Origin: an uncultured Flavobacteriales bacterium
GTDB taxonomy: Bacteria > Bacteroidota > Bacteroidia > Flavobacteriales_G > Salibacteraceae
DNA length: 64,000 nucleotides
Direction: 5' to 3'
Assembly (NCBI GenBank): GCA_937121175.1
Contig: CAKZKD010000005.1
Coordinates: forward strand, 310,001-374,000
Positions 44,105-64,000 of the stretch are shown piece after piece (position 1 is the stretch's first letter; each line of letters begins with the position of its first letter). A program made the position numbers and the translations under genes. A model generated the notes under the pieces. The model saw only the letters and a list, made by a program, of their open reading frames with translations, was not told the DNA's origin and did no database searches.

Positions 44105-44135
44105 GATTGCGGTAATTATTAATCCTCGTTTATTT

Positions 44136-46031: not shown

Positions 46032-47015
46032 TTAATAAACTCGCATAATATAAGCCAACGTATAAAATTGCGGCCGATTTTCATGACCAGTAACAGATAA
46101 AGTTGGTGTTCCCCCTGTTAAGCCAGCTGTGGCTGTATGTGTATGTGACCCAGCACTTGCGCTTACCTTTGAACCATTCCAATCGTTACAATCTGGACTT
46201 GATATACTACTTCCGTTGTCCGATTTGTTACTTCCACAAGCAAGAAAATTATAAGCCTCGTAGCCGTGGGTGTGGGCACCGCCTGAGGCTATGGTCACGG
46301 GGTGGTTATGTTTTGGCATTTCTGCTAACGAAAGGTAAACCCTTGGAGTCCCGCCGGTCAAACCAGTAGTAGTATCCTTTGTGCTCAAATTTCCAGGTTG
46401 GTTATAATCATTATTGAATACTCGAACAGGACTATAACCGGCCACAAAACGTCCGCGTAAATCGGGTGTTTTGTATCCATTCACGGTTGTACCATTGCAC
46501 AATGCCCAACCCTGTGGCGCAACTGTTCCACTCCACATTATTATTCCACCTAATGGAGTAGAGCCATTCCCCACAAATTTTCCTGTTGTTTTTATGTCCC
46601 CGTTAACCTCAAGTTTAGCAGTTGGTGTTGCTGTTCCAATCCCTACCTTTCCGTGTTTAATATTTGCAGCCGTCATGGTAGTCATATGAGCGGTATCCGC
46701 ATTGTTATCGGTTCTATACTCAGTTTTCCAAGGGTTCATTGCGTACCATTTTGTATTGCCTGTTGCTCCCACACCGTAGCCTACAAAAAGCACATCCAAA
46801 TCGGTGTCATACACCATCATACCTTGAGAAAAACCTGCGCCAGTACTCATAGCCTCTCTTTGTACAGTTGAAAGTCTAGGTATCAATAAGCCTTTATTAG
46901 TGGCATTCATATCCATAACAGCATTGGCATCAGGAGCCGTGGTATTTACGCCTATTTGAGCATTTACATAGAATCCAGAAAGGAAAACAACAACCAGAGC
47001 AAAAAACGGTTTCAT
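46032..47015 (-). CDS. Secreted collar-domain protein 6 (kinase cassette 2)
   Basis: A 327-residue exported protein from ATG 47015. An upstream ATG at 47063 would put 16 residues before the signal peptide and is rejected. The signal peptide is about 1-19 (ending FYVNAQ). N-module: IGVNTTAPDANAVMDMNATN, LSTVQREAMSTGAGFSQG, YDTDLDVLFVGYGVG, HGKVGIGTATPTAKLEVNG. The collar-like domain has GGIIMWSGTVAPQGWALCNG and TPDLRGRFVAGYSPV. The tip has KHNHPVTIASGGAHTHGYEA, an extra Cys (FLACGS), the motif NGSSISSPDCNDW and SAGSHTHTATAGLTGG, ending HENRPQFYTLAYIMRVY. Only collar gene of cassette 2; 143 bases from its LytTR gene, the same gap as for copy 5. Confidence 0.8.
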   Translation of the reverse strand: MKPFFALVVVFLSGFYVNAQIGVNTTAPDANAVMDMNATNKGLLIPRLSTVQREAMSTGAGFSQGMMVYDTDLDVLFVGYGVGATGNTKWYAMNPWKTEYRTDNNADTAHMTTMTAANIKHGKVGIGTATPTAKLEVNGDIKTTGKFVGNGSTPLGGIIMWSGTVAPQGWALCNGTTVNGYKTPDLRGRFVAGYSPVRVFNNDYNQPGNLSTKDTTTGLTGGTPRVYLSLAEMPKHNHPVTIASGGAHTHGYEAYNFLACGSNKSDNGSSISSPDCNDWNGSKVSASAGSHTHTATAGLTGGTPTLSVTGHENRPQFYTLAYIMRVY

Positions 47016-47069
47016 AAAGGAATAATTTACCTTCAAAACTCGGGGTGTAAGCATTTCTTTCAAAATAAT

Positions 47070-47158: not shown

Positions 47159-47827
47159 TTATACCACCCCTCGATAATTTCGAGAAATTGGAATAACATA
47201 CTCTGCTATTTTTATTTGAGAAGCATTGCGTTGTTCGATAAAGTATGAATTGACTATTGTGAAACGATTAACTTGAATAAAAAAATCAGGTAATAACTGA
47301 GTAATATCTTTAAGCGTGCTTCTATGGTGAAAGGTACCTTCTTGGGTAACTATGTCTAGGTAGTTTTTATCCGTTTTGATAAATAAAATTTCGGATGGCG
47401 CAATTTCTTTTATGCCAAAAGACCCATTAACTCCAATTTTAGGGTGTTGGTTTAAGAATAAAATTTCTAAAGCAGCTTCTACATCCAAATCTTTAAAGGG
47501 CTTACCAATGTAGCTCTTTGGTTTCAATGCAGCAGCTTTTTTTAACGTGAACTTGTCTTGGTTTGCCGTTAAAAAAATAAACGGTTTCTTCTTTTCGTTC
47601 AGCAATTTCCCTATATCCAAACCAGAAAGTTTTTTCGATAAGAATACATCAACGAGCGCTGCATCAAAACTCCAATCCGTTTCTTGCAAAAACTCTTCAC
47701 CACTCTTGAACAAACCATGAACATTATACCCTAATGAGTGGACTAAGCCTTTTAGGTGACTTGCCACAAAAAACTCATCTTCAAGTATGACGACAGACAA
47801 TTTAGTTTTTGATTTCATGTGTTGCAT
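47159..47827 (-). CDS. LytTR response regulator, canonical receiver (kinase cassette 2)
   Basis: A 222-residue regulator very like the one at 43448. The receiver has all key residues: SVVILEDEFFV, AALVDVFLSK, FIFLTANQD and YIGKPFKDLD. The LytTR domain has KTDKNYLDIV, LPDFFIQVNRFTIVN and VIPISRNYRG. An ATG three codons in (47818) is an alternative start. It is 33 bases downstream of its kinase gene and 143 bases upstream of collar gene 6. The likely partner is the kinase at 47861; cross-talk with kinase 1 is possible because the two pairs are close paralogues. Confidence 0.92.
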   Translation of the reverse strand: MQHMKSKTKLSVVILEDEFFVASHLKGLVHSLGYNVHGLFKSGEEFLQETDWSFDAALVDVFLSKKLSGLDIGKLLNEKKKPFIFLTANQDKFTLKKAAALKPKSYIGKPFKDLDVEAALEILFLNQHPKIGVNGSFGIKEIAPSEILFIKTDKNYLDIVTQEGTFHHRSTLKDITQLLPDFFIQVNRFTIVNSYFIEQRNASQIKIAEYVIPISRNYRGVV

Positions 47828-47860
47828 TTGGTCAAATAAACTGCGGCTTAAATTTATAAG

Positions 47861-49489
47861 TTATGCAGAAAACTTAAAACTATAAGTGCCTGTTTTTTTG
47901 TTCATTATTGTTTCTGAAACTTGAATTCTATCTAGTAATTCCTTAATTAATTCGGTGCCAGTTCCTGTCATTTTCGAATTTTCAAAATTCGAACCATCTG
48001 AATAAAAAAACAAAAACTTGTTCTCCTTCTTAATTAACTTAATATTTATTTCAGAATTGCTCTTACTATGGGCTATGGTGTTACTTAATAATTCATTTAA
48101 AATTAGTCCGAAATACACTATTCTTTCGTTATTAATTTCTACGCTATCAAGAGTTAAATCTACCTTTTTCTCTAAAATTGAAAATCTCTTGTAGTGGTTT
48201 ACTATGGTTTCAATGTACACTTTCAAATCGACTTCTTCTCCATGAGAACTCATGGTTAATTGTTCGTGTAAAGAGCTAATAACGTGGATTTTGTTTGATA
48301 AATCATCAATTATTACATCTCCCTTTTTGCCTTGATTTATCTTTGCATATCGAACCAGAGAGAGTATCATCTGTAAATTATTTTTAATTCTATGGTTACT
48401 CTCGAGCATAAGCAAACGATAATTGTCATTTGCTTTTGATAGGCTTTTATTGGTGCGGTAAATTCGTCTTTTCAGTGTTCGTTCTCTAAAAAACAACAAA
48501 CCAATGGTCAAAGCAATCGTTCCAGACAGAATAAAATAAAATAGAAATCTATTTTTTTTTGCTGCCTCTTCTTTTAAGTACAACGCCTCCTCTTTTTCTT
48601 CAAGTTTGGAAATTAAAAAATCGGACTTCGACTTATTCAATAAATGCATTTCATTAAAGGCCTTATAATCCTTGAACGCCATTGTTTCTTGGCTACGAAG
48701 AAATAGCTGCTCTTTAGAAATTAACTTCCACTTTAAAAAAGAAATGGAATCCTCATTAACCAAAGCTATTGATTCGAATAATTCGGAAAGCGAGAGTTTT
48801 ATTGAATACCAATTTCTGGACTTAACTATATTCCACAGATATCGAGATAATGAATCTGATTTTGAATAGATTTTTTCGTTATTAAAACTGCGCGAAACAT
48901 GAACCAGCGTACCAACATAGTTCTCGGTATCTCCTTGCGCAATAAATACATCCGCGGCATTCATCAATAGACTACGACCAGTATCGTGCATGGAAGATTC
49001 AACATAAACCAACCCTTGCTCTCTCAATAATGTTGGTAAATGCTCTCTAACATCGTTTTCTACGCATACTTTTATTGCAGAATCAAGGTAAAACTTTACA
49101 GAATCAAGATATCCAAGACCAATTGGCAAATCCGACCTTTCGTGATGTATAGCTGCAATTCGACCAAGTTGTCTGGTTTGCAAATCTGGGTAATGTTCTA
49201 ACCCTTCTAAAGCATAAAGTATGTCTAATCCTTTCGAGAATGCAGTTACAGAGCGGAAATGCTCTGCAAGCGAAATCTTAGTGTTCAATAGTTCCCAATT
49301 CCAATTTTCAGCATTGGCTATGGTTATAGCTTTTCTATAGCTTTCCTCGACTTCTTCATATTTTTTCTCATTCCGAAAGTTTTTAGCATCGGTTACGGCC
49401 TCATCAAAGTACACTCGTTGCTGAGTGCTATCTTGTGCTCGAGATAGGTTTGTTATCAGCACATAAACCAAAACAAGAATAAGTCTCAT
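47861..49489 (-). CDS. Sensor histidine kinase, TPR-like sensor plus HisKA_2 (kinase cassette 2)
   Basis: A 542-residue paralogue of the kinase at 44136 with the same layout. Signal peptide about 1-18 (ending SRAQ). Exported TPR-like helices about 25-300. Membrane helix about 312-330 (FLFYFILSGTIALTIGLLFF). HisKA_2 phosphoacceptor ESNHRIKNNLQMILSLVRY (His near 364), then SSHGEEVDLKVYIETIVNHY, the N box LILNELLSNTIAHS and the G box GTGTELIKEL. The TPR part is much more diverged between the two kinases than the kinase core, consistent with different input signals. It starts 47 bases after kbl on the same strand; GAACGTTC (49494-49501), a perfect palindrome, is just upstream. Confidence 0.9.
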   Translation of the reverse strand: MRLILVLVYVLITNLSRAQDSTQQRVYFDEAVTDAKNFRNEKKYEEVEESYRKAITIANAENWNWELLNTKISLAEHFRSVTAFSKGLDILYALEGLEHYPDLQTRQLGRIAAIHHERSDLPIGLGYLDSVKFYLDSAIKVCVENDVREHLPTLLREQGLVYVESSMHDTGRSLLMNAADVFIAQGDTENYVGTLVHVSRSFNNEKIYSKSDSLSRYLWNIVKSRNWYSIKLSLSELFESIALVNEDSISFLKWKLISKEQLFLRSQETMAFKDYKAFNEMHLLNKSKSDFLISKLEEKEEALYLKEEAAKKNRFLFYFILSGTIALTIGLLFFRERTLKRRIYRTNKSLSKANDNYRLLMLESNHRIKNNLQMILSLVRYAKINQGKKGDVIIDDLSNKIHVISSLHEQLTMSSHGEEVDLKVYIETIVNHYKRFSILEKKVDLTLDSVEINNERIVYFGLILNELLSNTIAHSKSNSEINIKLIKKENKFLFFYSDGSNFENSKMTGTGTELIKELLDRIQVSETIMNKKTGTYSFKFSA

Positions 49490-50899: not shown

Positions 50900-52606
50900 A
50901 TGCTAAACTTAAACTTCTTACGCTTTGGAATCTTTGGCTCTCTTCTATTGGGTTTATCTCAGGTTGGAGTGCAGGCACAAGACCTTTCTAACGCAGGAGA
51001 AAAGCCAATTTGGAAAGAAACAAAAATCAGTGGTGGAATTGGAGGGAGCTTAGTAGGCTATGACACAAGAGGACAAGTAGCTCAACGACCACCATTTTAT
51101 TGGATTCTTAATGCCAATTTGAATATTGATGTGTACGGAATGTCAATTCCGTTTAGCGCAACTATTACGTCACAAAATCAAGATTTTGCTCAGCCATTCA
51201 ATCAATTTGGTTTGAGTCCAAAGTATAAATGGGTTACTGCTCACCTTGGTTTTCGTAGCATGCAATTTAGCCAATACTCATTGGCTGGACTTACGTTCTT
51301 GGGTGCTGGGGTAGAACTAGAGATTCCAGAAACTAAGCTAACGGTAAAAGCAATGGGAGGTCGTCTTATTAAGGCGATTCCACTAGCACCAGGCATTGAA
51401 GTAGCTTCAGAAGCACCTGCGTTTGAACGTTGGGGGTACGGCGCTAACGTAGGCTACAAATACAAAACTGGTCAAATAGGATTTACGGTTTTCAAAGGAG
51501 AAGACATGCATAATTCAATAAACACAGATTCACTATTGCTGCTAAAGCCAGCAGAAAATGTGGTAACGGCCCTAACGTTTCAACAAAAAATAGGAGACCA
51601 CTGGAGTTTTAATGGTGAGTATGCATTAAGCGCATTTACTAAAGACCGAAGACTTGAAACTGTGGAGAGCAATGAGTTCGGTTATCAAAATAACTTTAAT
51701 TGGTTTGTTCAATCCAATTCTTCAACCGTTGTAAACTCTGCCTTTACTGGAAACATAGCATACACTATCAAAGCAAACACATTTGGCATTACCTACAGAA
51801 GGGTTGGCCCTGAATACCAAAGTATGGGCGCTACTTTCCTTAATAACGATGTTGAAGAAATTACAGGAAATGTGGGAACTTCTATTCTAAAACGAAAAGT
51901 GAATTTAGCCGGTAGTCTTGGATTCCAGAGAAACAACCTAGCAGAAAACCTTTATACCGATGACAGAAGAGTTATTGGTTCTGCAAATGTGACTTGGCTT
52001 GTGAGTAAAAAAGTAGTGCTTTCTGGTGTGTACTCGAATTATCGCGCTACAAGTGACCCAAGCGCAGTTAATGTGTTAGACACTATTCGATTTGTTCAAG
52101 TCACTGCCAACTATGGACTAGTAGCAACCTACTCAACCGCAAACGAAAAAATAGGACACAATGTTGTTCTTTCGAATAACTACCAACAAGCAAACAGTGT
52201 TCAAGAAGGTGATTTGCAGACTGTTGAAAACGGAAGTGAATTTTATAATACGAACCTCAGCTACACATTGGGTTTACTCAAAACAGGTATTAACATTACA
52301 GGCGCTGCGAACTACAATCAATTTATAAGCCCCGGTGCGGTAAATGAAGCTATTGGACCTACTTTGGCCATAAGCAAACCATTTTTCAATAAGGCATTAA
52401 ATACAATGGTAGCTTACAGTTTATTCAACAACTACTTGGATAAGGTGTTCCTAGATACAAGCTCAAACATTATGGCTAGCCTTGGTTTAAATGTAAAAAA
52501 ACACCACCAAGTAAAATTAGACGGTCGATTTATGGCTCGCTCGGGCAGCCAATCCAACCCAATTGAAGAAATTCAGGCGGGTCTATCTTATAACTACACA
52601 TTCTAG
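50900..52606 (+). CDS. Putative outer membrane beta-barrel protein, surface operon gene 1
   Basis: A 568-residue exported protein from ATG 50900. The frame is open to 50711, but that extension crosses the kbl start and would bury the signal peptide (about 1-27, FGIFGSLLLGLSQVGVQAQ). The mature part is a succession of amphipathic strands with many aromatic residues (FYWILNANLNIDVYGMSIPF, WGYGANVGYKYKTGQIGFTV, FGITYRRVGPEY) and ends in LSYNYTF, with a C-terminal Phe typical of barrels. I do not recognise a named family. It overlaps the giant gene by one base (TAGTG). Likely role: an outer-membrane anchor or export channel for the large protein that follows. Confidence 0.75.
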   Translation: MLNLNFLRFGIFGSLLLGLSQVGVQAQDLSNAGEKPIWKETKISGGIGGSLVGYDTRGQVAQRPPFYWILNANLNIDVYGMSIPFSATITSQNQDFAQPFNQFGLSPKYKWVTAHLGFRSMQFSQYSLAGLTFLGAGVELEIPETKLTVKAMGGRLIKAIPLAPGIEVASEAPAFERWGYGANVGYKYKTGQIGFTVFKGEDMHNSINTDSLLLLKPAENVVTALTFQQKIGDHWSFNGEYALSAFTKDRRLETVESNEFGYQNNFNWFVQSNSSTVVNSAFTGNIAYTIKANTFGITYRRVGPEYQSMGATFLNNDVEEITGNVGTSILKRKVNLAGSLGFQRNNLAENLYTDDRRVIGSANVTWLVSKKVVLSGVYSNYRATSDPSAVNVLDTIRFVQVTANYGLVATYSTANEKIGHNVVLSNNYQQANSVQEGDLQTVENGSEFYNTNLSYTLGLLKTGINITGAANYNQFISPGAVNEAIGPTLAISKPFFNKALNTMVAYSLFNNYLDKVFLDTSSNIMASLGLNVKKHHQVKLDGRFMARSGSQSNPIEEIQAGLSYNYTF

Positions 52607-55600
52607 TGAAAAGAATTCTTCACATATCGTTAATTCTGTTTGTTGCATTTATTGTTACTAAGCAATCTAATGCTCAGGTGAGAGCATTGCCAGTTACAGC
52701 AAATACCACCCTAACCCCGCCTTACACTGCGTACTTGACAGATTATACCAATATAGCCTCCAATAAACTAATGGTGAATGCTATTTTCAATGACTTTAGC
52801 GAGCCTTCGGTAGATGTTTATCTAAGCATTAAAATATCGAGTAATCTGGTGAGCTTGGAAACCAAACCTAATTTCAAACCATTAACCAGAACGACCCTCA
52901 CGCCTGGCGCAGCCAAACTTTTTAAAGGTTCCGATTTAGCACCTTACTTCAATTATTCCAATCTTAATCTTACCGGAATTACGCTTTCTGAATTAAACAG
53001 AACTGGAAGGCTACCTGATGGGAATTATCAGTTCTGTATTACTGTCAAGGAATACAACTCAGGAAGAGCAATTTCTAGAGTTTCTTGCACAATGGCATTC
53101 ATTTCACAGCAAGACCCTCCCCTACTCACCTTACCTACTCAAGGTGGAACCGTAACACCCCAAACACCTCAAAACTTAATCTTTCAATGGCAGCTAAAAA
53201 ACCCACCACCGGGCGGGTTTACCAATGTTGAGTATTATCTGAAATTGTACGAAATCACCGATAATTCAATCGACCCATTAACCTCTATATCTGCCAGCAA
53301 AGTGCTCAAAATTTTTGAAACCACTTCAACTACTCCTATTCTTACCACCAACTTTAACTACGGTGTAGTACAGCCCGTTCTGGACGAAGGAAAACGCTAC
53401 GCTTGGACCATTCAAATTAAAGAGAAAAACAATCGTCAAAGTTTTAAAAATAATGGTGTTTCACAGATTGGCTGGTTCCAATACGGGGTTCCAAGTGGTG
53501 GCTTAGTAGCCCTTTTGGCTCCAGATGATGGCCATGCTTTTGGCGAACGCGAAAACCGTAACTTTAAATGGAAAGCACCTGATAATGTGCTTCCCGGAAA
53601 TCAGTTTAAATACGAACTAAAAATTGTGGAAACCAACGGAAAGTCAGCTAAGGACGCCATTGCCCAAAACCCTTCTTGGTATTCTTTCACCAGTCAAGAC
53701 CAATCTTCGTTACAAGACTTCACGCACACAACAACAAAAGCATTTGCAAAAAAAGATGAATACGCTTGGCAAGTAAAGGCTATTCTCGGAACTCGTGAAG
53801 TTGCGGCAAGTCCAATCCGAAAAATTTCTGGCCCGCCGCTTATCAAATCTTTTTACGCTGGTAACGAAATTGTGACCGTAAAATCAACAGCCAATAAGGA
53901 CTTAAAGAACCTTGAAGGTATTGGAGAAATAAAAGTAAACACTAAGGGCGATACCAAACGCATCACATTTAAGGGGTTGAACATCGGAGTTTCTGGTGGT
54001 CAATATGTATTAAAATCTGGTACTATTTTATCGGCTATTGCGCTTGACCCCATAACACTGACTCCATTCAATACTATTAATGACGATGCTACTTTTTACC
54101 CAGATAGTGTTAAAATCGACAAGAATGATTTTAAATTACTTGGAACTGTAAAAATGGCATTACCTCATGCCGCTAAAGGCGGGCAGGTAAAATACATTGT
54201 ATCAGAACCTTCATGGTTAAACTACGAAGGCTTTACCTTACTTGGTAATGCCCTGCTAAACAATCAAAATGTCTATGACCTACTCGACCCAGGGAACTGT
54301 AAGTTAACGCTAAGAACCACCTCCGACTTCTTAATCAGTGGTGCTAACAAATACAAAATGCGATTTGATGCCGATATAGAAGTAAACCCAATCGTTCATA
54401 CAAAAGACAATAGCAGACTATCCTTCTTCCTAAAACAAATTGAACAGCTGTACTATTTCGAAATTGTAAAAGCAGATGAGTTCAACACCCAAAACACCAT
54501 TCCATTAGTCCAAAAAGCCAATATTTATGCTCGACCTATAAAAGTAGTTGTGGACTTAGACGAAACTCAATCACCTGGTCAGCATTCCTCTGATAAGTTG
54601 TGGAAAGGGATTTATTACCAAGAGTTTGAGCTTCAAATGGAGACCTCAATTGACGATTCTAAACAACAAATTTTGGCCAGTGAAATAAAGCAGGTATATA
54701 ACCTCAACAGCGATAATAACACCAAATTAGACATTGACGCTAAAGGGCTCCAGAGCGTATTAACTAGAGACTTCCAAACTTCCGAAAAGTCAACCTTTAA
54801 TATGTTCCCAGCAACCCTAACAAATTTCGAATACACAACAATAGACAACTCATTAACTGGAAGCGTAACGGGAAAAGTAATCATTCCATTTATAAGTGAA
54901 AGCACTCAGCACCTATACACCATACCAATAAACGACCAAGGGTTTAATCTAGGCTCGTTCGACAATACGCTTAATGGTACCGTTATCAACTTTAACCCGT
55001 CTGGTGGCGAGCAAAAAATGGTAGTAACCCTCAAAAGAGCGGTCTTTGCAGACAACGAAAGACTGGATTGTACTGTTGATTTGAACTCGCCAATTCTAAA
55101 ACACACGTTTAACGCGCTAAACGATTTTAGAATCTATGGAGACCTATTTATCGGTTTTGGAAAACGAAACGGTTCTCATAAATTGTCTAACCAAGTAAAA
55201 CTGAAGTACGAAGGCTTTAACATCAATGTTTATGAGCTTGGGGCAAGTTTGGTTGACGGGAAGTATGCATTGAGTATCAGAACTACGGCACCAATGGGTA
55301 ATGATGTTGCTGGAAAACAAGGCCCTCCTATTTTAGACTTTAGTTCGGTTGCTCCTATTGCTAACAAACCTGCAGATGTTAATTTAAGTGACCCAAAATA
55401 CGCGGCTAACAAACCAGAAGTACCTGTTACGATTGCTACTGACCAAGACGCCAAATCTTTTGCTTTTGAAAAAGTAGAAGTGGACCTTAACTCAACCATT
55501 ATAGAAATGAAAGGCTCACTTGAACTTAGAAAAGGAGACCCTTATTGGGGCACCGTTTTCAAAGGAGACATTAAAGGCGCACTAAAAGTACCTTCCAGAA

Positions 55601-58600
55601 TAGAATTGGGTGCTAGTATGATTTTGGGTACCAGAGACGCACTTAAATACTGGTATTTCGATGCCTATTTTAATGATACGCAGGGTATGGGAGTTTCGGT
55701 AATGGGCTTTTTCAATATTACAGCTCTTGAAGGCCGTGTTTATCGACACATGAACTACGATACCAAAGCAGGAGACTTTATAATAGACCCTACAATAAAA
55801 TTTGGTGCTGGTTTATACATGCAGCTCATCGACCCCAAGGGTGGAAAAATGTTCAAGTCAGATATCGCGGCAGAAGTTGAAGTTAAATCCTCTGGTTATA
55901 TTGTAGATGTTGAAGGGGACCTTTCTATGCTAAATGCCACTTCCCGTTCTCCTGGAGCTGGAGGTGTCGCTAAGAAAGCGGTAGCCAAGGAAGTCGCAAA
56001 AGAAGTTGCTAAGCAATTAGGACCTATCGACGTTGAAATTCCTATCGGAAGTGATAAAATGAAGCTTTCAGCAAGTACCGAAAAAGCTGGATTAACTTAT
56101 ACAACAGGCTCTACAACTTATGGTTTTAGCGCAGATATCTCTTCAGCAGCTGGAGCCGAACTAACCTATAAAAACGGTAGTGATGAATTGATTCTTGCTG
56201 GTTCTAGATTGGGAAGCGCTTCCTTCAAATTGAAAAAAGGCTCAAACGTGGTTGGTCTGGCATATGACGGAGCGAATAAGGGATCAGTAGAGTTTGCAAA
56301 TGGTGGATTTAATTTAAACTCAAGCTTTAACAAACTGCAGAAAGCTGGCGAATTGAAAGTATCATACAGTGGAACTACGGTTGAAGTTGCTGCGGACGCC
56401 ACATCCGGAAAAGGAAGTTTACTCGTAGAAATTGATGCTAACAACTCATTTGGAGCATCGTTTGACCGAATTGGTGCTGGCAGCCTAAATGTAAAAACTG
56501 CTTCGCTTAGCATGAAGATGGAGGCAAACAAGGTGGCTCAAACTGGTAAATTTGGTTTTACCTACAACAGCACTCAATTTGCTGTAGCCGCGGATAAAAA
56601 GAATGGAACTGGGTCTTTAGCAATTGGAACTGGGTCCAAAAAACTTGAAGCAGAAGGCGATAAAGTAGGAATAGGTCGTGTGATGATGACCGATGGGTCG
56701 GCCAAATTTGAATTGAAAGCAGATAAACCTGCTGGAACAGGTAGCGTAGAAATAATCCCGGACCCAAGTAAACGTCTATATGTATTTCTTGACAAAAGTG
56801 GAGCTGGGACCTTTGAAGCATTGTATAATGGAATGGATTTAAGAGTCAGTGCTGACAAGAACGCTGGGTCAGGGTCTATTTTCGCAAAATACGGCAGTAA
56901 AAAACTTACTGCAAGAGGGAGTAAACAAGCACTCACTGGATATTTCTCTTATGCAGATGGTAATGACTCAGTAAGTGCCGATTTATCTTCCACTAAAATG
57001 AAAGTCGAAGTGGCCCAACAAGGTACCTACTTCATGGTAGATGCGGATAAAAGTGGAAATGGTAATCTTGAAATCAAGACTGGAGTTTACCGATTCAAAA
57101 CAGGTTTAAATAATGACGTTTTCACAGTTATGGCAAAGGATGCCACGAAAGCGGTTTATGCATCAGCAGACGAAAAAAATCAGACCGGCTCTTTTGCACT
57201 GAAAATTAATTCAGATTCACTATACACCGCAGCTACATCAACTAGTGCAACTTTTTACTCCGATTATTCTGGAACTAAATTTTTTATTACCGGAGATAAA
57301 GCAGGAAGCGGTAAACTCGAATTATTGCAAGGAACGAAAGAACTTAAAATTGACGGTGATGTTACCAAAAAGTCAGGTTCATTCTTCATTAAAGATGGTA
57401 GTAACGCCATATACCTAGCCGCTAATCAAAGTGCTGCCACAGGAAATCTTGCGATGAAAATTGGTTCGGATAGTATTAAGGCAAATGTGAAAGCCAATGA
57501 AGCCGATTTAGCCTTCGCCTACAATGGAGTTGCTATGGCTGTGGATGCGAATAGAGCTGGTAGCGGAAAAATATCCTATTCTCAAAACGGAAAAGAAATT
57601 GAAATTGATGCCAATGTCGTCGCTCAAACTGGTACGTTCAAATATTCCGAATCAGCCTTCGATATTCAAATAACGACAGCTAAAGAATTTGACCTAAACA
57701 TTGGTAGCACCAACTTCCACTTAAATTTTGGCAGCCAATACGAACTAAAAAAATCTGGAACTGCAGTTGCAATGGGACTAGTCAACAACATTGGCACCCA
57801 TACATTTACCGAAAATGGCTATGCATGTACCATTGTTTCTACTGCTTCTGTTAAATCACTTCAAGTTACAAAAGCTGGAAATACCGTCAAAATAGCGTTA
57901 GACAATGCGGATAACGGAACATTAACCTTCACCACTTCAGGAGTAACTTATACTGCACAAAAGCTTGCCACTGGAACTTACAAGCTAAGTTCAGGAACGA
58001 AGAGTATCGCATTGCTTTCTGATAAATCGGTAATACTGAAAGACGGAACGTCAAAAGAACTAGAAATCTCTACTAATGGACTTAAAGTAAAATATGACGC
58101 ATACAACATGGCAATTGATGCGACTAAAAAAGAGTTTTCATATGCGGACGCAACTTACGGCATGAGCTTTAGTCCGACAGAAGTAAAACTAAACGATGCC
58201 ACCAGAGCAATTAAGTTAAAGGCCGATAAATCTTTTGAATTCAGTGAAGGAAAAACAAAAAAATTATTGTTATCAAAAGATGAAGTCAATGTGACTTACG
58301 ACAATTACACCGCAGCATTTGGAACGAACAAATCGTTGAGCTTTTCAGACGGTAAAAAATCATTTGTCGCAACTACGAATGGACTTAGTTTATCAGATGG
58401 AACAAAAACCATAAAGCTCAATACTGACAAGAGCGCATCTTATGCGGATGGTACTTCTAAGTTCGTAAAGATTGACCCAGAAGGTGTGGACTTAAAATAT
58501 GATACCTATACTGCCTCTTTCAATAAATCAAAGGACCTCAACTTTAGTGATGGCTCTAACTCTTTTGCGCTGAACCCAAACAAAATGGAGTTAAAAACAG

Positions 58601-59961
58601 GAACAAACTCTGTTGCTCTAGAGAATAAAAATGGGGTTAAATCAATCTCTGCTTCCGACGGCACCAATTCAGCCTCATTCGCCAGCACCGGAACTGCTAC
58701 TGTCTTATATGGCTCCAACACAATTCGGGTCAATGGAACTAAAATGCTAGAGTTAGAAGTTAGCAAACACAAAGTCGCAATTGATAAAGGAAGTGCTTCT
58801 TATACCGATGGAGATGTTTTACTAGCACTCGGTGAAGGAAATGATTTACTTAAAGCAAGCAAGGGAACGAGAAGTTTAGCAATTACAAAAGATTCCGATC
58901 TTGAACTAAAAGACGGAAAATACCTTGCCAGTGTCTCGTACAACAAGAAAAGCCTCAAGCTTTCTGATGGAACTCGAACAGTAACTGCTGGCGGAACAAC
59001 TAACCTTATTTCGTATCAAGAAGCCGGTTACTTAGTCTCTTTCTATAAAGCTACAAGTGGGCAATATGGATTAAAAGGTGCCTACAGTGGAAGTTCAGTT
59101 GCAGTTGAAGCCGGAAGAGGAAAAGACATTAAAGTTATAGCGGCAAATTCTAGTCTTGGAGAAATAGCCGTATCCGGAAATAGCAAAAAAGACATCATTC
59201 TTGATTACAAAAAAGGCTCGGATGACCTAAAAATTGTAACCGGCTCTAAATCTTTCGACATAAGCGGGTCATTACTATCCAAGGTAGTTCCGGGCGGAGG
59301 TGTTGGAGCAAAAGACCCCAAACTTGCCAAAAAAGGACCTGCACAAAAGGGACCTAAATACCTGAAAAAGAAAATTACCGATGGTAAAGCGGGCGTTAAA
59401 GGTAAAGTCAAAATGCATTATGATAGTCACAAAGACTACTTGCTCATATCAGGTGCAGTTGCCAGTGCAAATCCAATCTGTATAAATGGAACCATGGTCA
59501 TTGAATCTAAAAAAGGCGATTGGAAAGTAGAAATAGGCTCCAAGGCAAAACACATCGAAGTATATCCAACCTGTGCCGGATTTGGTGGTGGTGGATTTTT
59601 ATTAATGGATAAAAAAACCACGGAAGTTGGTATTTACGGTGGATTTAAAGCTGGTGGTTGTGTTGGCATAGGCATAGCAGATATCTGTGCAAGAGCAAGT
59701 CTTACAATTTTTGCCGAGGCTAAATTCACATACAGTCCATCATTTGCAATTAACCACGTAATGGTAGGTGCCGACTTTAGGGCATCTTTAACAGTTGAAC
59801 CACCTTGGCCACTATCAAATTTCACGATTGGAGGTGTTCGGCTACACGGTCAATTAAAGGCTGACTTTGACAAGAATAATATTTCTGGTAAACTAAATGG
59901 AAGTGCAACAATTCTAGGGTGTTCGAAAGGCTTTGATATGAACTTTAATATGGGAATGTAA
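52606..59961 (+). CDS. Giant repetitive surface protein, surface operon gene 2
   Basis: A 2451-residue exported protein, GTG start overlapping the previous stop. Signal peptide about 1-24 (ending KQSNAQ). The N-terminal region (about 28-270; TANTTLTPPYTAYLTDYTN, then fibronectin-like strands) reminds me of the TANFOR-type domain of large Bacteroidota surface proteins. A beta-rich middle (about 270-1150) follows. Next comes a 25-unit repeat array (about 1161-1695), a linker, then a second array of 17-residue units (about 1808-2009). A Gly/Lys/Pro-rich hinge lies near 2230-2260 (KDPKLAKKGPAQKGPKYLKK). The C-terminal domain has six cysteines and many glycines (CAGFGGGGF, FKAGGCVGIGIADICARA). No T9SS sorting domain is visible. 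Function unknown. Confidence 0.85.
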   Translation: MKRILHISLILFVAFIVTKQSNAQVRALPVTANTTLTPPYTAYLTDYTNIASNKLMVNAIFNDFSEPSVDVYLSIKISSNLVSLETKPNFKPLTRTTLTPGAAKLFKGSDLAPYFNYSNLNLTGITLSELNRTGRLPDGNYQFCITVKEYNSGRAISRVSCTMAFISQQDPPLLTLPTQGGTVTPQTPQNLIFQWQLKNPPPGGFTNVEYYLKLYEITDNSIDPLTSISASKVLKIFETTSTTPILTTNFNYGVVQPVLDEGKRYAWTIQIKEKNNRQSFKNNGVSQIGWFQYGVPSGGLVALLAPDDGHAFGERENRNFKWKAPDNVLPGNQFKYELKIVETNGKSAKDAIAQNPSWYSFTSQDQSSLQDFTHTTTKAFAKKDEYAWQVKAILGTREVAASPIRKISGPPLIKSFYAGNEIVTVKSTANKDLKNLEGIGEIKVNTKGDTKRITFKGLNIGVSGGQYVLKSGTILSAIALDPITLTPFNTINDDATFYPDSVKIDKNDFKLLGTVKMALPHAAKGGQVKYIVSEPSWLNYEGFTLLGNALLNNQNVYDLLDPGNCKLTLRTTSDFLISGANKYKMRFDADIEVNPIVHTKDNSRLSFFLKQIEQLYYFEIVKADEFNTQNTIPLVQKANIYARPIKVVVDLDETQSPGQHSSDKLWKGIYYQEFELQMETSIDDSKQQILASEIKQVYNLNSDNNTKLDIDAKGLQSVLTRDFQTSEKSTFNMFPATLTNFEYTTIDNSLTGSVTGKVIIPFISESTQHLYTIPINDQGFNLGSFDNTLNGTVINFNPSGGEQKMVVTLKRAVFADNERLDCTVDLNSPILKHTFNALNDFRIYGDLFIGFGKRNGSHKLSNQVKLKYEGFNINVYELGASLVDGKYALSIRTTAPMGNDVAGKQGPPILDFSSVAPIANKPADVNLSDPKYAANKPEVPVTIATDQDAKSFAFEKVEVDLNSTIIEMKGSLELRKGDPYWGTVFKGDIKGALKVPSRIELGASMILGTRDALKYWYFDAYFNDTQGMGVSVMGFFNITALEGRVYRHMNYDTKAGDFIIDPTIKFGAGLYMQLIDPKGGKMFKSDIAAEVEVKSSGYIVDVEGDLSMLNATSRSPGAGGVAKKAVAKEVAKEVAKQLGPIDVEIPIGSDKMKLSASTEKAGLTYTTGSTTYGFSADISSAAGAELTYKNGSDELILAGSRLGSASFKLKKGSNVVGLAYDGANKGSVEFANGGFNLNSSFNKLQKAGELKVSYSGTTVEVAADATSGKGSLLVEIDANNSFGASFDRIGAGSLNVKTASLSMKMEANKVAQTGKFGFTYNSTQFAVAADKKNGTGSLAIGTGSKKLEAEGDKVGIGRVMMTDGSAKFELKADKPAGTGSVEIIPDPSKRLYVFLDKSGAGTFEALYNGMDLRVSADKNAGSGSIFAKYGSKKLTARGSKQALTGYFSYADGNDSVSADLSSTKMKVEVAQQGTYFMVDADKSGNGNLEIKTGVYRFKTGLNNDVFTVMAKDATKAVYASADEKNQTGSFALKINSDSLYTAATSTSATFYSDYSGTKFFITGDKAGSGKLELLQGTKELKIDGDVTKKSGSFFIKDGSNAIYLAANQSAATGNLAMKIGSDSIKANVKANEADLAFAYNGVAMAVDANRAGSGKISYSQNGKEIEIDANVVAQTGTFKYSESAFDIQITTAKEFDLNIGSTNFHLNFGSQYELKKSGTAVAMGLVNNIGTHTFTENGYACTIVSTASVKSLQVTKAGNTVKIALDNADNGTLTFTTSGVTYTAQKLATGTYKLSSGTKSIALLSDKSVILKDGTSKELEISTNGLKVKYDAYNMAIDATKKEFSYADATYGMSFSPTEVKLNDATRAIKLKADKSFEFSEGKTKKLLLSKDEVNVTYDNYTAAFGTNKSLSFSDGKKSFVATTNGLSLSDGTKTIKLNTDKSASYADGTSKFVKIDPEGVDLKYDTYTASFNKSKDLNFSDGSNSFALNPNKMELKTGTNSVALENKNGVKSISASDGTNSASFASTGTATVLYGSNTIRVNGTKMLELEVSKHKVAIDKGSASYTDGDVLLALGEGNDLLKASKGTRSLAITKDSDLELKDGKYLASVSYNKKSLKLSDGTRTVTAGGTTNLISYQEAGYLVSFYKATSGQYGLKGAYSGSSVAVEAGRGKDIKVIAANSSLGEIAVSGNSKKDIILDYKKGSDDLKIVTGSKSFDISGSLLSKVVPGGGVGAKDPKLAKKGPAQKGPKYLKKKITDGKAGVKGKVKMHYDSHKDYLLISGAVASANPICINGTMVIESKKGDWKVEIGSKAKHIEVYPTCAGFGGGGFLLMDKKTTEVGIYGGFKAGGCVGIGIADICARASLTIFAEAKFTYSPSFAINHVMVGADFRASLTVEPPWPLSNFTIGGVRLHGQLKADFDKNNISGKLNGSATILGCSKGFDMNFNMGM
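56086..57690 (+). repeat. 25 tandem coding repeats of about 21-22 residues in the giant protein
   Basis: Units of 20-22 residues tile this segment exactly (535 residues in 25 units). The consensus runs (T/S/A/K)G(S/K) + alternating hydrophobics + a turn at Gly/Asn + alternating hydrophobics + A(D/N)K. Examples of unit starts are AGELKVSYSGTTVEVAAD, TGKFGFTYNSTQFAVAAD, SGKLELLQGTKELKIDGD and SGKISYSQNGKEIEIDAN. Each unit should form one beta-hairpin. Units have diverged at the DNA level, so this is not recent slippage. Confidence 0.85.
58027..58632 (+). repeat. 17-residue repeats arranged in three four-unit super-repeats
   Basis: Three consecutive super-repeats begin at 58027, 58231 and 58432 (68, 67 and 67 residues). 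Each has four 16-17-residue units of alternating type. The second units are GLKVKYDAYNMAIDATK, EVNVTYDNYTAAFGTNK and GVDLKYDTYTASFNKSK, with a conserved YDxY. Third units carry S(D/Y)(A/G) turns such as SLSFSDGKKSFVATTN and DLNFSDGSNSFALNPN. Degenerate units continue to about 58990. Confidence 0.85.
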
Positions 59962-61991
59962 TGAGAATAATATTTGCCATATTGAGTTTTCTTTTCGCCT
60001 TCTGTGGACAACAAATTGGGTTTGCGCAAGAAGACCGCAAGCCTAACACCCTCTTGGTGAAAAACATGCAAGATGGAACTGTTTTTCTTAAGTGGGTGTG
60101 CGAAAAAGTATATTACGAAGAAGGCTTCAACGTATATCGAAAAACTGATATTGGCGCTTGGGAAAAGTTAAACAAAGACCCACTATTATGGAACGATACT
60201 GAAATTGCAAGAATCTCGGGAATCTATCCCGATGTTGCCATGTTCAATGGAATATTTCAAAAAATTACGGTAAAAGAGTTTCAAGAGAATGTCGCGTCTG
60301 TATTTGCACTTCAAAAAGCATTTCAGTTTAATGAATTTGCATTGGCTATGGCCATAGGTTACGTAGATAAAACTGCCAGTTCTGGTACTTCCTATTCTTA
60401 TAAAGTAGTAGCTATTGAAAACGGTCTAGAAACCGAAATGGACCAAAAACAACTAACGGTTGGAATCTACACTCCGGTGCAACCCCCTCAAAATATAGTG
60501 GTTGAACGTAAAAAGAGAAAAATAAATTTCGATTTCAAACCAGAACCCATGCGCTACTTTGGAATCAAGGTGTTCAGAACTGGATCCGATTTCTCTACAG
60601 ATACACTAACCGGAACAGACGTTTATGCTGTTCAGCAAGACATTGATGAAAATGGGAAGCTAGTCCCTTGGCCAAAGCATTTGTTTATTGACAGAACCAT
60701 AAATAAGGAAGTAGAATACACTTACGAATTTTTTGCTGTTGATTATTTTGCCGAAACAAGCCCTTCTTCCGGCGAAATAAAATCTGAAACCATTGATTTT
60801 GACCCCCCGCAAGAAGCATTTGGTCTAGACTTTACCATTGATACTCAAAAAGTGAATCTGACTTGGGTTACCGTAGTTGACCCCGATAGAGCAGGGATAA
60901 ATGTGTATCGGTACAATGCCGAAGGAAAAGATTCGATTAAACTAAACTCAGAGCCGCTAAGCAGAGATGCACTAGCTATTACCAATCAAGTTGAAGAATT
61001 TGCAACTTATTTCTATAAAGTCGGTGTTTTTGATGCTACTGGCAATGAAATTCTCTCAGCTCCTACAATGGTGCAGGTAAGGGATATCATACCTCCGCTT
61101 CCACCAACCGGAGTAAAAACAACTACGGATACAGGTAAAGTGAACCTAACCTGGAGGCCGAACAAAGAGCCTGACCTAAAAGGTTACGTGATTTTTAAGG
61201 TAATTGATGATGGAAGCAACAACGAGGAAGAGTACACTTTGGTGAACCCAAAACCGATAACAGCTACCAACTATACCGAAACTATGTCGAAAAATGTAAA
61301 AAACACCTTTCATTATGTGGTTACCGCGGTTGACACTTCTTGGAACTACAGCAAAAAATCAGAGTATAGCGTAGCAGAGTTGCCTGACCACGTGTCGCCA
61401 GTTAAGCCATTTATAAAAATGGTAAAACAGGACGATAAATCCGTTGTGGTTGAATGGATTCCGAACAAAGATGAAGACCTAAAAGGTTACCACATGTACC
61501 GAAAAACAGTAGGTGACTCAACTCAACAACCCGAAAAACTGAACGGAAGACTACTCAAGCTAGACAAATCAACTTACGACGACAAACTGTTTGATCCCGG
61601 AACAAATTACAGCTACTATATGCAAGCGGTCGACAGTTCTGGAAATACCTCTGAATTCAGCAATGAATTTCAAATAAAGACGGCCGGAAAGTCCAAAAAA
61701 CAAGCTGTAAACCTGAGTAGTTTTTCGGTAAAAAAGAAACGCAAGGGAAAGATGGTAAGCCTGAAATGGGTTGCCCTTCCAGAAGAAAATATTGAGGGTT
61801 ATATGCTTTATCGTAAACTATCCTCGGATAAACGTTTTATGCCCCATACTGGACAATTAAGCAATTCTGTTTTCACCGACAAAAAATTTGAAAAAGGAAA
61901 AACATACGAATATCAGTTGCGGGTTTACACCAAAGCAGGCGACGTTATTCGCTCGGAAGTAAAAGAAATTGAAATTCCAGCTGATAAATAG
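59961..61991 (+). CDS. Fibronectin type III-like surface protein, surface operon gene 3
   Basis: A 676-residue exported protein whose ATG overlaps the giant gene's stop (TAATG). Signal peptide about 1-22 (CGQQIGFAQ). At least four fibronectin-III-like domains follow an N-terminal one: typical strands are TVFLKWVCEKVYYEEGFNVY, KVNLTWVTVVDPDRAGINVY, KVNLTWRPNKEPDLKGYVIF, SVVVEWIPNKDEDLKGYHMY and VSLKWVALPEENIEGYMLY. It ends SEVKEIEIPADK with no sorting domain or barrel. Such domains mediate protein-protein or glycan contacts. Very probably works with the giant protein and the outer-membrane protein before it. Confidence 0.85.
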   Translation: MRIIFAILSFLFAFCGQQIGFAQEDRKPNTLLVKNMQDGTVFLKWVCEKVYYEEGFNVYRKTDIGAWEKLNKDPLLWNDTEIARISGIYPDVAMFNGIFQKITVKEFQENVASVFALQKAFQFNEFALAMAIGYVDKTASSGTSYSYKVVAIENGLETEMDQKQLTVGIYTPVQPPQNIVVERKKRKINFDFKPEPMRYFGIKVFRTGSDFSTDTLTGTDVYAVQQDIDENGKLVPWPKHLFIDRTINKEVEYTYEFFAVDYFAETSPSSGEIKSETIDFDPPQEAFGLDFTIDTQKVNLTWVTVVDPDRAGINVYRYNAEGKDSIKLNSEPLSRDALAITNQVEEFATYFYKVGVFDATGNEILSAPTMVQVRDIIPPLPPTGVKTTTDTGKVNLTWRPNKEPDLKGYVIFKVIDDGSNNEEEYTLVNPKPITATNYTETMSKNVKNTFHYVVTAVDTSWNYSKKSEYSVAELPDHVSPVKPFIKMVKQDDKSVVVEWIPNKDEDLKGYHMYRKTVGDSTQQPEKLNGRLLKLDKSTYDDKLFDPGTNYSYYMQAVDSSGNTSEFSNEFQIKTAGKSKKQAVNLSSFSVKKKRKGKMVSLKWVALPEENIEGYMLYRKLSSDKRFMPHTGQLSNSVFTDKKFEKGKTYEYQLRVYTKAGDVIRSEVKEIEIPADK

Positions 61992-64000
61992 ATGAAGATG
62001 CTAAACATAAAAATATCTACATACTGGATGTTAGCAATGGTCTCACTGTTGTTTTCCAGCACTGTGTTGGGTCAAAACGATTCAGCTTTCATTATAAATA
62101 AGGGAACCAACTTTTTTGTGGATAGTGGCACCACTGTTACCATAAAAAATGGAAAGTTTATACAAGACGATACCTTATCTATTGAAAAATTCAACCTTGC
62201 CGGCGAACTCCAAGCAGATAGCGGAATTATTTCAAGAAATTACAACAAGAACAGGATGTTCCTTATTCCAGCTGTGGGCAATAACTACGGAAAAGTACTT
62301 ATCAAAGCAGGTTCAATTAGTGGAACTGGTAACGCTCCAAGATTTGGAAATCTTCACTTAAATTCTACCGATTCGTTAAAATTAAATACCAATGTAGATG
62401 TAATCAACCAACTGGTTCTAGAAAACGGCATTCTGAATCTAAACGCCAAACAGCTTAACCTTTTCTACGAAGAAAACTCAGCATCCATATACCAAGCGGA
62501 ATTGACTGGTGAAGACGAAACAAAATTTATTGGAGATGCAAAAGGCCTTGGCCAAGTTTCTGTGCGTTACCACAATCCTTTTAACCAAAAAGCAAGTACA
62601 GGAGGGGTAATTCCTAACACTACTTTTGGTGGAGTTGGAGCAACAGTTGGGGCCTCAAGTTATACCACCGATATCAACGTTTCAAGAGTGTACGATACCT
62701 CTCAGGCTCCCAATAACAATTTTGAAAACTACTTTCTAATTAACCCAGGAGCCAATATTAGTGACCCAGAAATAACGATAAACTATTTTAATCGTCAAAA
62801 ACCTGCTGGTTCTAACCCGACCAAATACAAGGTATTTAGAGCGCCAACCGACGCCAACGCTAATTACCGACCAAGTATTTCTGTAGTGAATCAAGGTGCA
62901 AAAACCGTATTCACAGATAAAGCCCTTGTAACCAATGTAGCTCAGCGGTATTTAATCGGCGATTGCCCTGTGGAGCCTATATTAACCCTCCAAAACAACT
63001 ATTCTATTTGCGAAAATGACACGCCGTTTGTAATAAACGCCTATCACGCTTCTCACACCAGTAGTTACACCTATCAGTGGTACAAAAACGGAACACCTGA
63101 TGTTACTAATGGTAAAGATTCGACCTACTCCATTAACGTAACTGACAATTACGCGATGTTGGTAACAGATACTTCTACTGGTTGTTTTAACTATTTTCAG
63201 TTCGATGTTTACGTTAATCCCAGCCCAAAAAACATAAACTTTACTGCACAAACCATAAAATGTGAAGACCGAGACATTGTGTTCACCAATACTACTGGAG
63301 CACTCTCTTCTGGGGCTTACAAAAACTCAAAATGGGACTATAATGTTGCTAATTTAGGAACTAGCACGTCTACAGATTCTGGTAAAGCAAATGGTAAATT
63401 TATTTATGCCGATAGTGGTTCTTTTCAGGTTATGCTTATTATGGAAACCGATTCGGGTTGCAAAGACACCTCAGCCCAAACGATTGGCGTGCACAAAAAT
63501 CCAAGCTCGGTAATTGCAGCTTCCACTTTTGAACGATGCGCTAATGAAACCTTTGTTTTTCAGAACAATTCTACTCTCGGAGGCCCAGACCAAATACTGA
63601 CTAGTTTCTGGAGTATAAATGGAATAGACGTCCAAACTAAAAACAATCCAAATCAATTGCAAGATGCCCAATACAATCGGATTGCACCACCAGGACCAAC
63701 CAATAGAAGTGAAACACTTATGCTAATTACGCTATCTAATGCGAACTGTAGAGATACCGCAACTCAAACCATACAAGTAAGACCTGTTCCTAGTGCCGTG
63801 CCGGCCATAGTAATTAACCCAACGCGAAACCCCATAAAATTTTGTATCGATACTACCATTTCTTTGCAAGCAAATTCTGTTCAGAACACGGTAAGTTTCA
63901 ATTGGGACTTTGGAAATTCGGCTACAAATACAGCCAATAACGCTAAAAGAACGCAACAAAACCCAAATTCTATTCTCTTCTCAGAGGCCGGAACATACAT
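61992..64000 (+). CDS. PKD/Ig-like secreted adhesin, surface operon gene 4 (incomplete at window end)
   Basis: An open frame of at least 669 codons begins with ATG immediately after the stop of the preceding gene and runs off the window without a stop. Signal peptide about 1-28 (MLAMVSLLFSSTVLGQ). The first 320 residues are a beta-rich domain with FFVDSGTTVTIKNG. Ig/PKD-like domains follow, with pairs of cysteines and the usual phrases: SYTYQWYKNGTPD, YAMLVTDTSTGC, GSFQVMLIMETDSGCKDTSA and, at the edge, VSFNWDFGNSA. Proteins of this style in flavobacteria often end with a gliding-motility-associated C-terminal domain used by the type IX secretion system. That end is not visible here. Confidence 0.85.
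   Translation, partial: MKMLNIKISTYWMLAMVSLLFSSTVLGQNDSAFIINKGTNFFVDSGTTVTIKNGKFIQDDTLSIEKFNLAGELQADSGIISRNYNKNRMFLIPAVGNNYGKVLIKAGSISGTGNAPRFGNLHLNSTDSLKLNTNVDVINQLVLENGILNLNAKQLNLFYEENSASIYQAELTGEDETKFIGDAKGLGQVSVRYHNPFNQKASTGGVIPNTTFGGVGATVGASSYTTDINVSRVYDTSQAPNNNFENYFLINPGANISDPEITINYFNRQKPAGSNPTKYKVFRAPTDANANYRPSISVVNQGAKTVFTDKALVTNVAQRYLIGDCPVEPILTLQNNYSICENDTPFVINAYHASHTSSYTYQWYKNGTPDVTNGKDSTYSINVTDNYAMLVTDTSTGCFNYFQFDVYVNPSPKNINFTAQTIKCEDRDIVFTNTTGALSSGAYKNSKWDYNVANLGTSTSTDSGKANGKFIYADSGSFQVMLIMETDSGCKDTSAQTIGVHKNPSSVIAASTFERCANETFVFQNNSTLGGPDQILTSFWSINGIDVQTKNNPNQLQDAQYNRIAPPGPTNRSETLMLITLSNANCRDTATQTIQVRPVPSAVPAIVINPTRNPIKFCIDTTISLQANSVQNTVSFNWDFGNSATNTANNAKRTQQNPNSILFSEAGTY

What the first reader, a model, noticed from the sequence alone, without database searches (positions are those of the whole stretch)
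50900..64000. Four-gene translationally coupled surface operon around a 2451-residue protein
Outer-membrane barrel, giant repeat protein, fibronectin-like protein and PKD/Ig-like adhesin follow with junctions TAGTG, TAATG and TAG-ATG, so ratios of the products are probably fixed by coupling. All four have signal peptides. None of the three complete ones carries a recognisable sorting domain. The set resembles an outer-membrane anchor plus an extended fibre plus accessory adhesins. I cannot name a described system that matches it.
Basis: partly seen in the sequence, partly recalled or inferred. Interest (0 to 1): 0.7.

Follow-up and report, generated by a model that had tools for sequence, protein, structure and literature searches.

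The report
Barrel-giant-FN3 surface operon in Bacteroidota
This operon is a toxin-less version of a widespread bacterial surface system in which a very large outer-membrane pore is almost always paired with a giant protein whose relatives carry bacterial toxins, and the pore, which I found in no annotation or paper searched, may be how those giants leave the cell.

Summary
In detail: four signal-peptide ORFs with the stated junctions. Beyond the window the operon has six genes: barrel, 2451-aa giant, FN3, 3039-aa PKD protein (type A T9SS sorting domain), 1889-aa PKD protein (type B) and a PorP/SprF-SPOR carrier. All six are conserved in three relatives.

In 296 Bacteroidota genomes the barrel is in 68 and the giant in 69, together in 68, FN3 in 58 of these; usually close together, always same strand. 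The giant's N-terminus is TANFOR-like. TANFOR proteins are described polymorphic toxins whose neighbourhoods are enriched in FN3, PKD and T9SS cargo, so part of the set is known.

New here: an unannotated OM protein modelled as a 26-strand, plug-less barrel, the constant partner of these giants; natural TANFOR-barrel fusions, suggesting docking at its periplasmic mouth; and two giant classes, toxin-tailed with small ORFs next, and toxin-less (the window) with a conserved tail followed by FN3.

Most likely an envelope-anchored surface fibre or adhesin, passed through or held by the barrel. The export route is unproven, and the T9SS remains a serious rival.

The parts
50900..52606 (+). Gene 1: OM beta-barrel, 568 aa, predicted 26 strands, no plug; no Pfam or NCBIfam family
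   Evidence: AF2 model mean pLDDT 84.8; best PDB match MtrB 6r2q_B, Z 20.2, 465 residues, rmsd 5.7; family of 431 relatives
52606..59961 (+). Gene 2: giant protein, 2451 aa, toxin-less TANFOR-like giant
52693..53100 (+). Gene 2 TANFOR-like domain (residues ~30-165), first of three Ig/FN3-like sandwiches
   Evidence: TIGR02542 20.2 bits, under the 67-bit cut-off; 27 of 55 relatives match it, best E 2.5e-22; model residues 1-270 pLDDT about 90
53107..53838 (+). Gene 2 two FN3-like domains (residues ~168-411)
   Evidence: FN3-like folds, Z 9-10
53893..55935 (+). Gene 2 middle beta-rich region (residues ~430-1110), shared by toxin-less giants only
   Evidence: partly low confidence in the model
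55996..59271 (+). Gene 2 repeat region (residues ~1131-2222), about 21-residue beta units; length varies between relatives (absent in L066, longer in L065)
59395..59958 (+). Gene 2 conserved C-terminal domain (residues ~2264-2451) of toxin-less giants
59961..61991 (+). Gene 3: FN3-repeat protein, 676 aa, no sorting domain
61992..64000 (+). Gene 4 (start only): PKD protein, 3039 aa, type A T9SS sorting domain; runs on to base 7111 after the window end (genome C5:371992-381111). Genes 5 (C5:381121-386790, type B cargo) and 6 (C5:386800-388425, PorP/SprF-SPOR) follow outside the window

Best explanation
The locus is the toxin-less form of a two-component envelope system found across Bacteroidota: a large plug-less OM barrel (gene 1) and a giant Sec-exported protein (gene 2) whose N-terminal TANFOR/FN3-like domains dock at the periplasmic mouth of the barrel, with an FN3 protein (gene 3) as third partner. 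The giant is held by the barrel, and its C-terminal part is carried out through it or onto it. In most sampled Flavobacteriia and Cytophagales relatives that part ends in a variable, toxin-like tail with a small, probably immunity, ORF next. In the window it is a long beta-repeat region with a conserved tail, acting as a surface fibre or adhesin. Genes 4-6 supply co-expressed T9SS adhesins and a PorP/SprF carrier tied to peptidoglycan by SPOR. Shown by sequence: the pairing, the phylum-wide linkage, the fusions, the two giant classes, the six-gene conservation. Predicted: the 26-strand barrel. Inferred: docking side, export route, fibre function.
For: Co-occurrence in 296 genomes: barrel 68, giant 69, both 68 (Fisher 6.5e-67); FN3 59, all three 58; 87 of 98 barrels within 30 kb of a giant, all same strand. 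Within one genus (g6) 7 genomes have both and 10 neither. Independent probe: all 7 genomes that ring for TIGR02542 are barrel genomes, and all 9 hits are these giants. Giant directly downstream of barrel in 59 of 79 named loci, 49 of them within 28 nt or overlapping. Barrel and giant-N distances correlate, r = 0.94, n = 59. Natural TANFOR-barrel fusions in six ORFs of 871-1016 aa. Barrel model; the top PDB match MtrB is a 26-strand sheath (strand count from general knowledge). Strand and loop parity puts both termini on the periplasmic side, so a domain fused N-terminally lies in the periplasm or lumen (inference). Toxin tails: WHH nuclease, colicin-type DNase, toxin-deaminase. Toxin-less tail conserved and followed by FN3. 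Six-gene unit in three relatives.
Against: No complex prediction and no experiment. The barrel model has pTM 0.71 and loops of low confidence. All 112 barrel genomes tested have the T9SS translocon SprA, which leaves room for T9SS export. 11 of 98 barrels have no giant within 30 kb, though their genomes do. The mid-region of the giant is poorly predicted, so 'fibre' rests on repeats and length alone. Correlated distances may only reflect the species tree: nearest neighbours agree in 31 of 59.
Confidence: 0.5

Rival explanations
1. The T9SS exports the giant (as Jana et al. 2020 hypothesised for TANFOR toxins) and the barrel is only its surface anchor or receptor, as PorP/SprF is for type B cargo.
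For: All 112 barrel genomes tested have SprA and none of the 67 SprA-lacking genomes in the phylum sample has the barrel; T9SS cargo is often beside the barrel (35 same strand, 3 opposite; directly upstream in 15 of 75 loci); T9SS tails are enriched near TANFOR genes (PMC7073777); in the window T9SS cargo and carrier are in the same operon.
Against: Gene 2 has no type A or B sorting domain and none was found in ten toxin-class tails. SprA is near universal in the background (35 of 36 barrel-negative Bacteroidales), and the SprA-lacking genomes shown come from few lineages, so the association says little. A surface anchor would not need a periplasmic-side TANFOR fusion.
Confidence: 0.3
2. Giant and FN3 protein stay in the periplasm or at the inner face of the OM, as a structural or sensory assembly on the barrel; the toxin-tailed forms are a derived use.
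For: A related single-copy set combines a ~360-aa TANFOR-like protein, a FecR protein, a ~810-aa barrel-like protein and a CHASE2/adenylate cyclase protein, which suggests envelope sensing; fusions place TANFOR on the periplasmic side.
Against: C-terminal DNase and deaminase toxins with following small ORFs make little sense unless they leave the cell; repeat length varies freely between relatives, as expected of a surface fibre.
Confidence: 0.13
3. The window's giant carries an unrecognised toxin at its C-terminus and is an ordinary TANFOR polymorphic toxin.
For: Many TANFOR proteins lack a recognised toxin domain (PMC7073777); Pfam recognised a toxin in only 3 of 10 toxin-class tails.
Against: Its tail is shared by other toxin-less giants (L063-L066, L069, own paralogue), is beta-rich, and no small ORF follows: FN3 overlaps it by one base. 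Polymorphic toxin tails are variable.
Confidence: 0.06

Closest known systems
TANFOR-domain polymorphic toxins (TIGR02542; Jana, Salomon and Bosis 2020, PMC7073777)
   Same: Homologous N-terminus, signal peptide, large size; neighbourhood of FN3, PKD and T9SS cargo; relatives of the window giant carry WHH, colicin-DNase and deaminase tails.
   Different: The window giant has no toxin tail and no immunity gene; it scores 20 bits against a 67-bit cut-off. The barrel partner is not in the paper's table of enriched domains. The family seen here is about ten times wider than the model detects (7 against 69 genomes).
T9SS type B cargo with PorP/SprF carrier (SprB-SprF; PMC9143113, PMC12635249)
   Same: Genes 5 and 6: type B sorting domain next to a PorP/SprF barrel.
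   Different: Gene 6 has a coiled coil and SPOR domain and no cysteine, whereas SprF needs a Cys-X-Cys tail to join GldK; so anchorage to peptidoglycan rather than to the moving track is suggested.
MtrB (sheath barrel of the Mtr complex) and chaperone-usher barrels FimD/PapC
   Same: Size and fold of the barrel; each surrounds or passes another protein.
   Different: Fold match only, 9-12% identity; no cytochrome, chaperone, plug or usher domains seen here.
Inverse autotransporters (type Ve, intimin/invasin), recalled as an analogy
   Same: Works-like analogy: a barrel on the N-terminal side, C-terminal part outside, Ig-like domains.
   Different: Two separate genes and a far larger barrel; no sequence relation was tested.

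Membership tests
TANFOR polymorphic toxins | N-terminal TANFOR domain (TIGR02542) | tested here: inconclusive
   Window giant 20.2 bits, E 4e-4, under the cut-off of 67; 27 of 55 homologous N-termini match at E <= 1e-3, best 2.5e-22
TANFOR polymorphic toxins | Variable C-terminal toxin domain | tested here: not met
   No toxin family in gene 2; tail conserved among toxin-less giants. Met in relatives L079, L105, L132
TANFOR polymorphic toxins | Immunity gene directly downstream | tested here: not met
   FN3 gene overlaps the stop codon by one base
TANFOR polymorphic toxins | Neighbourhood with FN3, PKD and T9SS cargo | tested here: met
   Genes 3, 4, 5
T9SS cargo (genes 1-3) | C-terminal sorting domain type A or B | tested here: not met
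T9SS cargo (genes 4, 5) | C-terminal sorting domain type A or B | tested here: met
   Gene 4 TIGR04183 29.2 bits, cut-off 23; gene 5 TIGR04131 59.6 bits, cut-off 35
SprF-type mobile adhesin carrier (gene 6) | PorP/SprF barrel | tested here: met
   TIGR03519 241.6 bits, cut-off 90.6
SprF-type mobile adhesin carrier (gene 6) | C-terminal Cys-X-Cys for the GldK disulfide | tested here: not met
   No cysteine in the protein; requirement in PMC12635249
MtrB-type barrel (gene 1) | Sequence family membership | tested here: inconclusive
   No Pfam hit for gene 1 and only generic single OM-barrel hits among 50 relatives, but the fold matches
Inverse autotransporter (type Ve) | Barrel and passenger in one chain | tested here: not met
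   Separate genes 1 and 2; fusions elsewhere join only TANFOR/Ig and the barrel

The most novel reading that the evidence does not exclude
The 26-strand barrel is itself the dedicated export channel for the giant: an undescribed two-partner secretion route of Bacteroidota, independent of T9SS sorting domains, that displays either toxins or toxin-less fibres, with TANFOR as its docking and recognition module.
Probability: 0.33. Interest if true: 0.88.

Novelty: new variant of a known kind. Interest (0 to 1): 0.64.

Why it matters
How TANFOR polymorphic toxins leave the cell is an open question; the 2020 paper could only propose the T9SS. A conserved large-pore barrel that is present wherever the giants are, adjacent to them and in some genomes fused to their N-terminal type of domain, turns that question into a direct test: delete the barrel. 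It also shows that the toxins are one branch of a broader surface system with a toxin-less class, and it points to an OM protein family that has no Pfam or NCBIfam entry.

Tried and rejected
Profile A1 was too diverse for the search for related loci; a six-row alignment worked. Weak A1 matches to ~800-930-aa single-copy proteins (L043) gave no Pfam family; they are a separate, related barrel family and were excluded from the counts by an E-value limit. T9SS dependence by co-occurrence was tried twice; it is uninformative, as nearly every genome outside a few lineages has SprA. Fold search with the giant finds only generic FN3/Ig sandwiches in the first 411 residues; the mid-region is too poorly modelled for a fold claim. 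Counting PorP/SprF neighbours failed because a single-seed profile did not expand, so no count is given. No paper on a TANFOR-associated barrel was found in the searched library; most subscription papers are not held. The FlgD_ig hit in gene 2 (20 bits, cut-off 27) and the CbhB hit in gene 3 (46 bits, cut-off 1950) are below their cut-offs and were discarded as names.

Full report
What is there. The window lies at 310001-374000 of contig C5 of a 3.7-Mb draft genome; its nearest named relatives are Crocinitomicaceae/Flavobacteriales UBA6770 metagenome genomes. The contig continues past the window. Gene 4 ends at 3039 aa with a type A T9SS sorting domain. After gaps of 9 bases each come gene 5 (1889 aa, PKD repeats, type B sorting domain) and gene 6 (541 aa, PorP/SprF barrel, coiled coil, SPOR); the next gene is on the other strand. 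So the unit has six genes. The same six genes in the same order occur in three relatives: FN3 68-69% identical in two and 40% in the third, gene 4 60-66% and 40%, gene 5 65-66% and 45%, gene 6 70-71% and 37% (in the third, three collar-type genes are inserted before gene 4). The own genome holds a second copy of genes 1-3 on contig C12, followed by a collar-type protein and a PKD protein with a type A sorting domain.

Do the families occur independently? Profiles were built from barrels found with gene 1 alone, from giant N-termini and from FN3 proteins, and run over the same 296 Bacteroidota genomes. At strict limits the barrel is in 68 genomes, the giant in 69, both in 68; FN3 in 59, all three in 58. 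These 68 genomes fall in 27 anonymous families, and presence varies inside one well-sampled genus (7 with both, 10 with neither), so this is not one old inheritance. 87 of 98 barrels have a giant within 30 kb, always on the same strand. A caveat: the giant profile was built from neighbours of barrels. An independent probe, the NCBIfam TANFOR model, rings in 7 of the 296 genomes; all 7 are barrel genomes and all 9 hits are the same giants. The refutation therefore fails for genes 1-3. T9SS cargo is frequent beside the barrel (35 same strand, 3 opposite; directly upstream in 15 of 75 loci) but not constant.

What the giant is. Its first ~411 residues are three Ig/FN3-like sandwiches, the first matching TANFOR weakly (20 bits; 27 of 55 relatives match, best E 2.5e-22). 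TANFOR proteins were described in 2020 as polymorphic toxins with FN3, PKD and T9SS genes nearby (PMC7073777). Two classes can be told apart among the giants found here. In one, only the first ~300 residues are shared with the window protein, the tail is variable and in some a recognised toxin (WHH nuclease, colicin-type DNase, deaminase: 3 of 10 tested), and a small ORF usually follows at once. In the other, which holds the window protein, its paralogue and L063-L066 and L069, a middle region and a C-terminal domain are shared as well, and the next gene is the FN3 protein. Between middle and tail lies a region of about 21-residue beta units whose length varies: absent in L066 (1367 aa), about 1100 residues in the window, longer still in L065 (3225 aa).

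What the barrel is. It has no Pfam or NCBIfam family, and its relatives give only generic single hits. The AlphaFold2 model (50 sequences, mean pLDDT 84.8, pTM 0.71) shows 25 strands and one short one; counted as 26, the long loops fall on one side and the short turns on the other, with both termini on the short-turn side, taken as periplasmic (inference). The best match by VIA-align is MtrB, 465 aligned residues, Z 20.2, rmsd 5.7; Foldseek also lists pilus ushers and SprA. No plug domain is present in the sequence or model.

Link between them. Six ORFs from four anonymous families (871-1016 aa) carry the giant-type N-terminal domains followed by the barrel in one chain; three of these loci also show both a separate giant and an FN3 gene. 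A fusion of two proteins that are elsewhere neighbours is a classical sign of physical contact, and since the fused domain precedes the first strand it should lie on the periplasmic side or in the lumen. In the named loci the giant follows the barrel directly in 59 of 79 cases, 49 of them within 28 nt or overlapping, and the distances of the two families correlate with r = 0.94. Overlapping or abutting stop/start junctions recur in the paralogue and relatives, so coupling is plausible; nothing here measures product ratios.

Mechanism. Shown: the pairing, linkage, fusions, two classes and six-gene conservation. Predicted: the barrel. Inferred: the TANFOR/FN3 domains dock from the periplasm; the rest of the giant is passed out through the barrel or held on it; in the window the exported part is a fibre or adhesin. 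The strongest rival is T9SS export with the barrel as an anchor. All 112 barrel genomes tested have SprA, but so do 35 of 36 barrel-negative Bacteroidales, and the SprA-lacking genomes shown come from few lineages, so this does not decide. The giants have no T9SS sorting domain. Genes 4 and 5 are ordinary T9SS cargo by their tails. Gene 6 should carry gene 5, as SprF carries SprB and PorP carries PG1035 (PMC9143113); lacking cysteines, it cannot make the SprF-GldK disulfide (PMC12635249), and the SPOR domain suggests peptidoglycan anchorage instead.

Verdict. It is filed as a new variant of a known kind (TANFOR systems), because the toxin and immunity features were tested and not met in the window, while N-terminus and neighbourhood fit. 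The barrel partner and the toxin-less class are, as far as the searched papers and libraries show, undescribed.

Noticed in passing
L144 3554-10050, L145 4007-10667; own genome L143 7130-10585: A related single-copy set beside rseP/dxr-like genes: ~360-aa TANFOR-like protein, FecR protein (~235 aa), ~810-aa barrel-like protein and a CHASE2/adenylate cyclase protein; the own genome has a 368-aa TANFOR-like protein beside an unannotated 718-aa protein. Possibly an ancestral envelope-sensing form.
   Followed up: partly
window 46032-47063 (-); L025 6539-7585; L158 16942-19786: Secreted phage tail-collar-like proteins recur with this system: one upstream in the window, one directly after FN3 in the paralogue, three in a row between FN3 and gene 4 in the relative G298 (the last three judged by eye).
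   Followed up: partly
window 43448-45773 and 47159-49489 (-): Two similar histidine kinase plus response regulator pairs (by reading, LytTR-like regulators) just upstream of the operon; the paralogous locus L025 is also preceded by a regulator and a kinase fragment.
   Followed up: no
L003 12800-14425 (gene 6): PorP/SprF barrel fused to a coiled coil and SPOR domain, without cysteine: a T9SS cargo carrier apparently tied to peptidoglycan rather than to the gliding track.
   Followed up: partly
L027 1894-4350, L028 16546-18993 and Aquimarina-type loci L100-L141: In Flavobacteriaceae the barrel carries an extra ~250-residue C-terminal domain, absent in the window protein; it should face the periplasm.
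   Followed up: no
L003 16008-17036 (-): At the contig end, a protein with near-identical ~50-residue repeats and a sorting-domain-like tail runs off the contig; such repeats may have broken the assembly.
   Followed up: no
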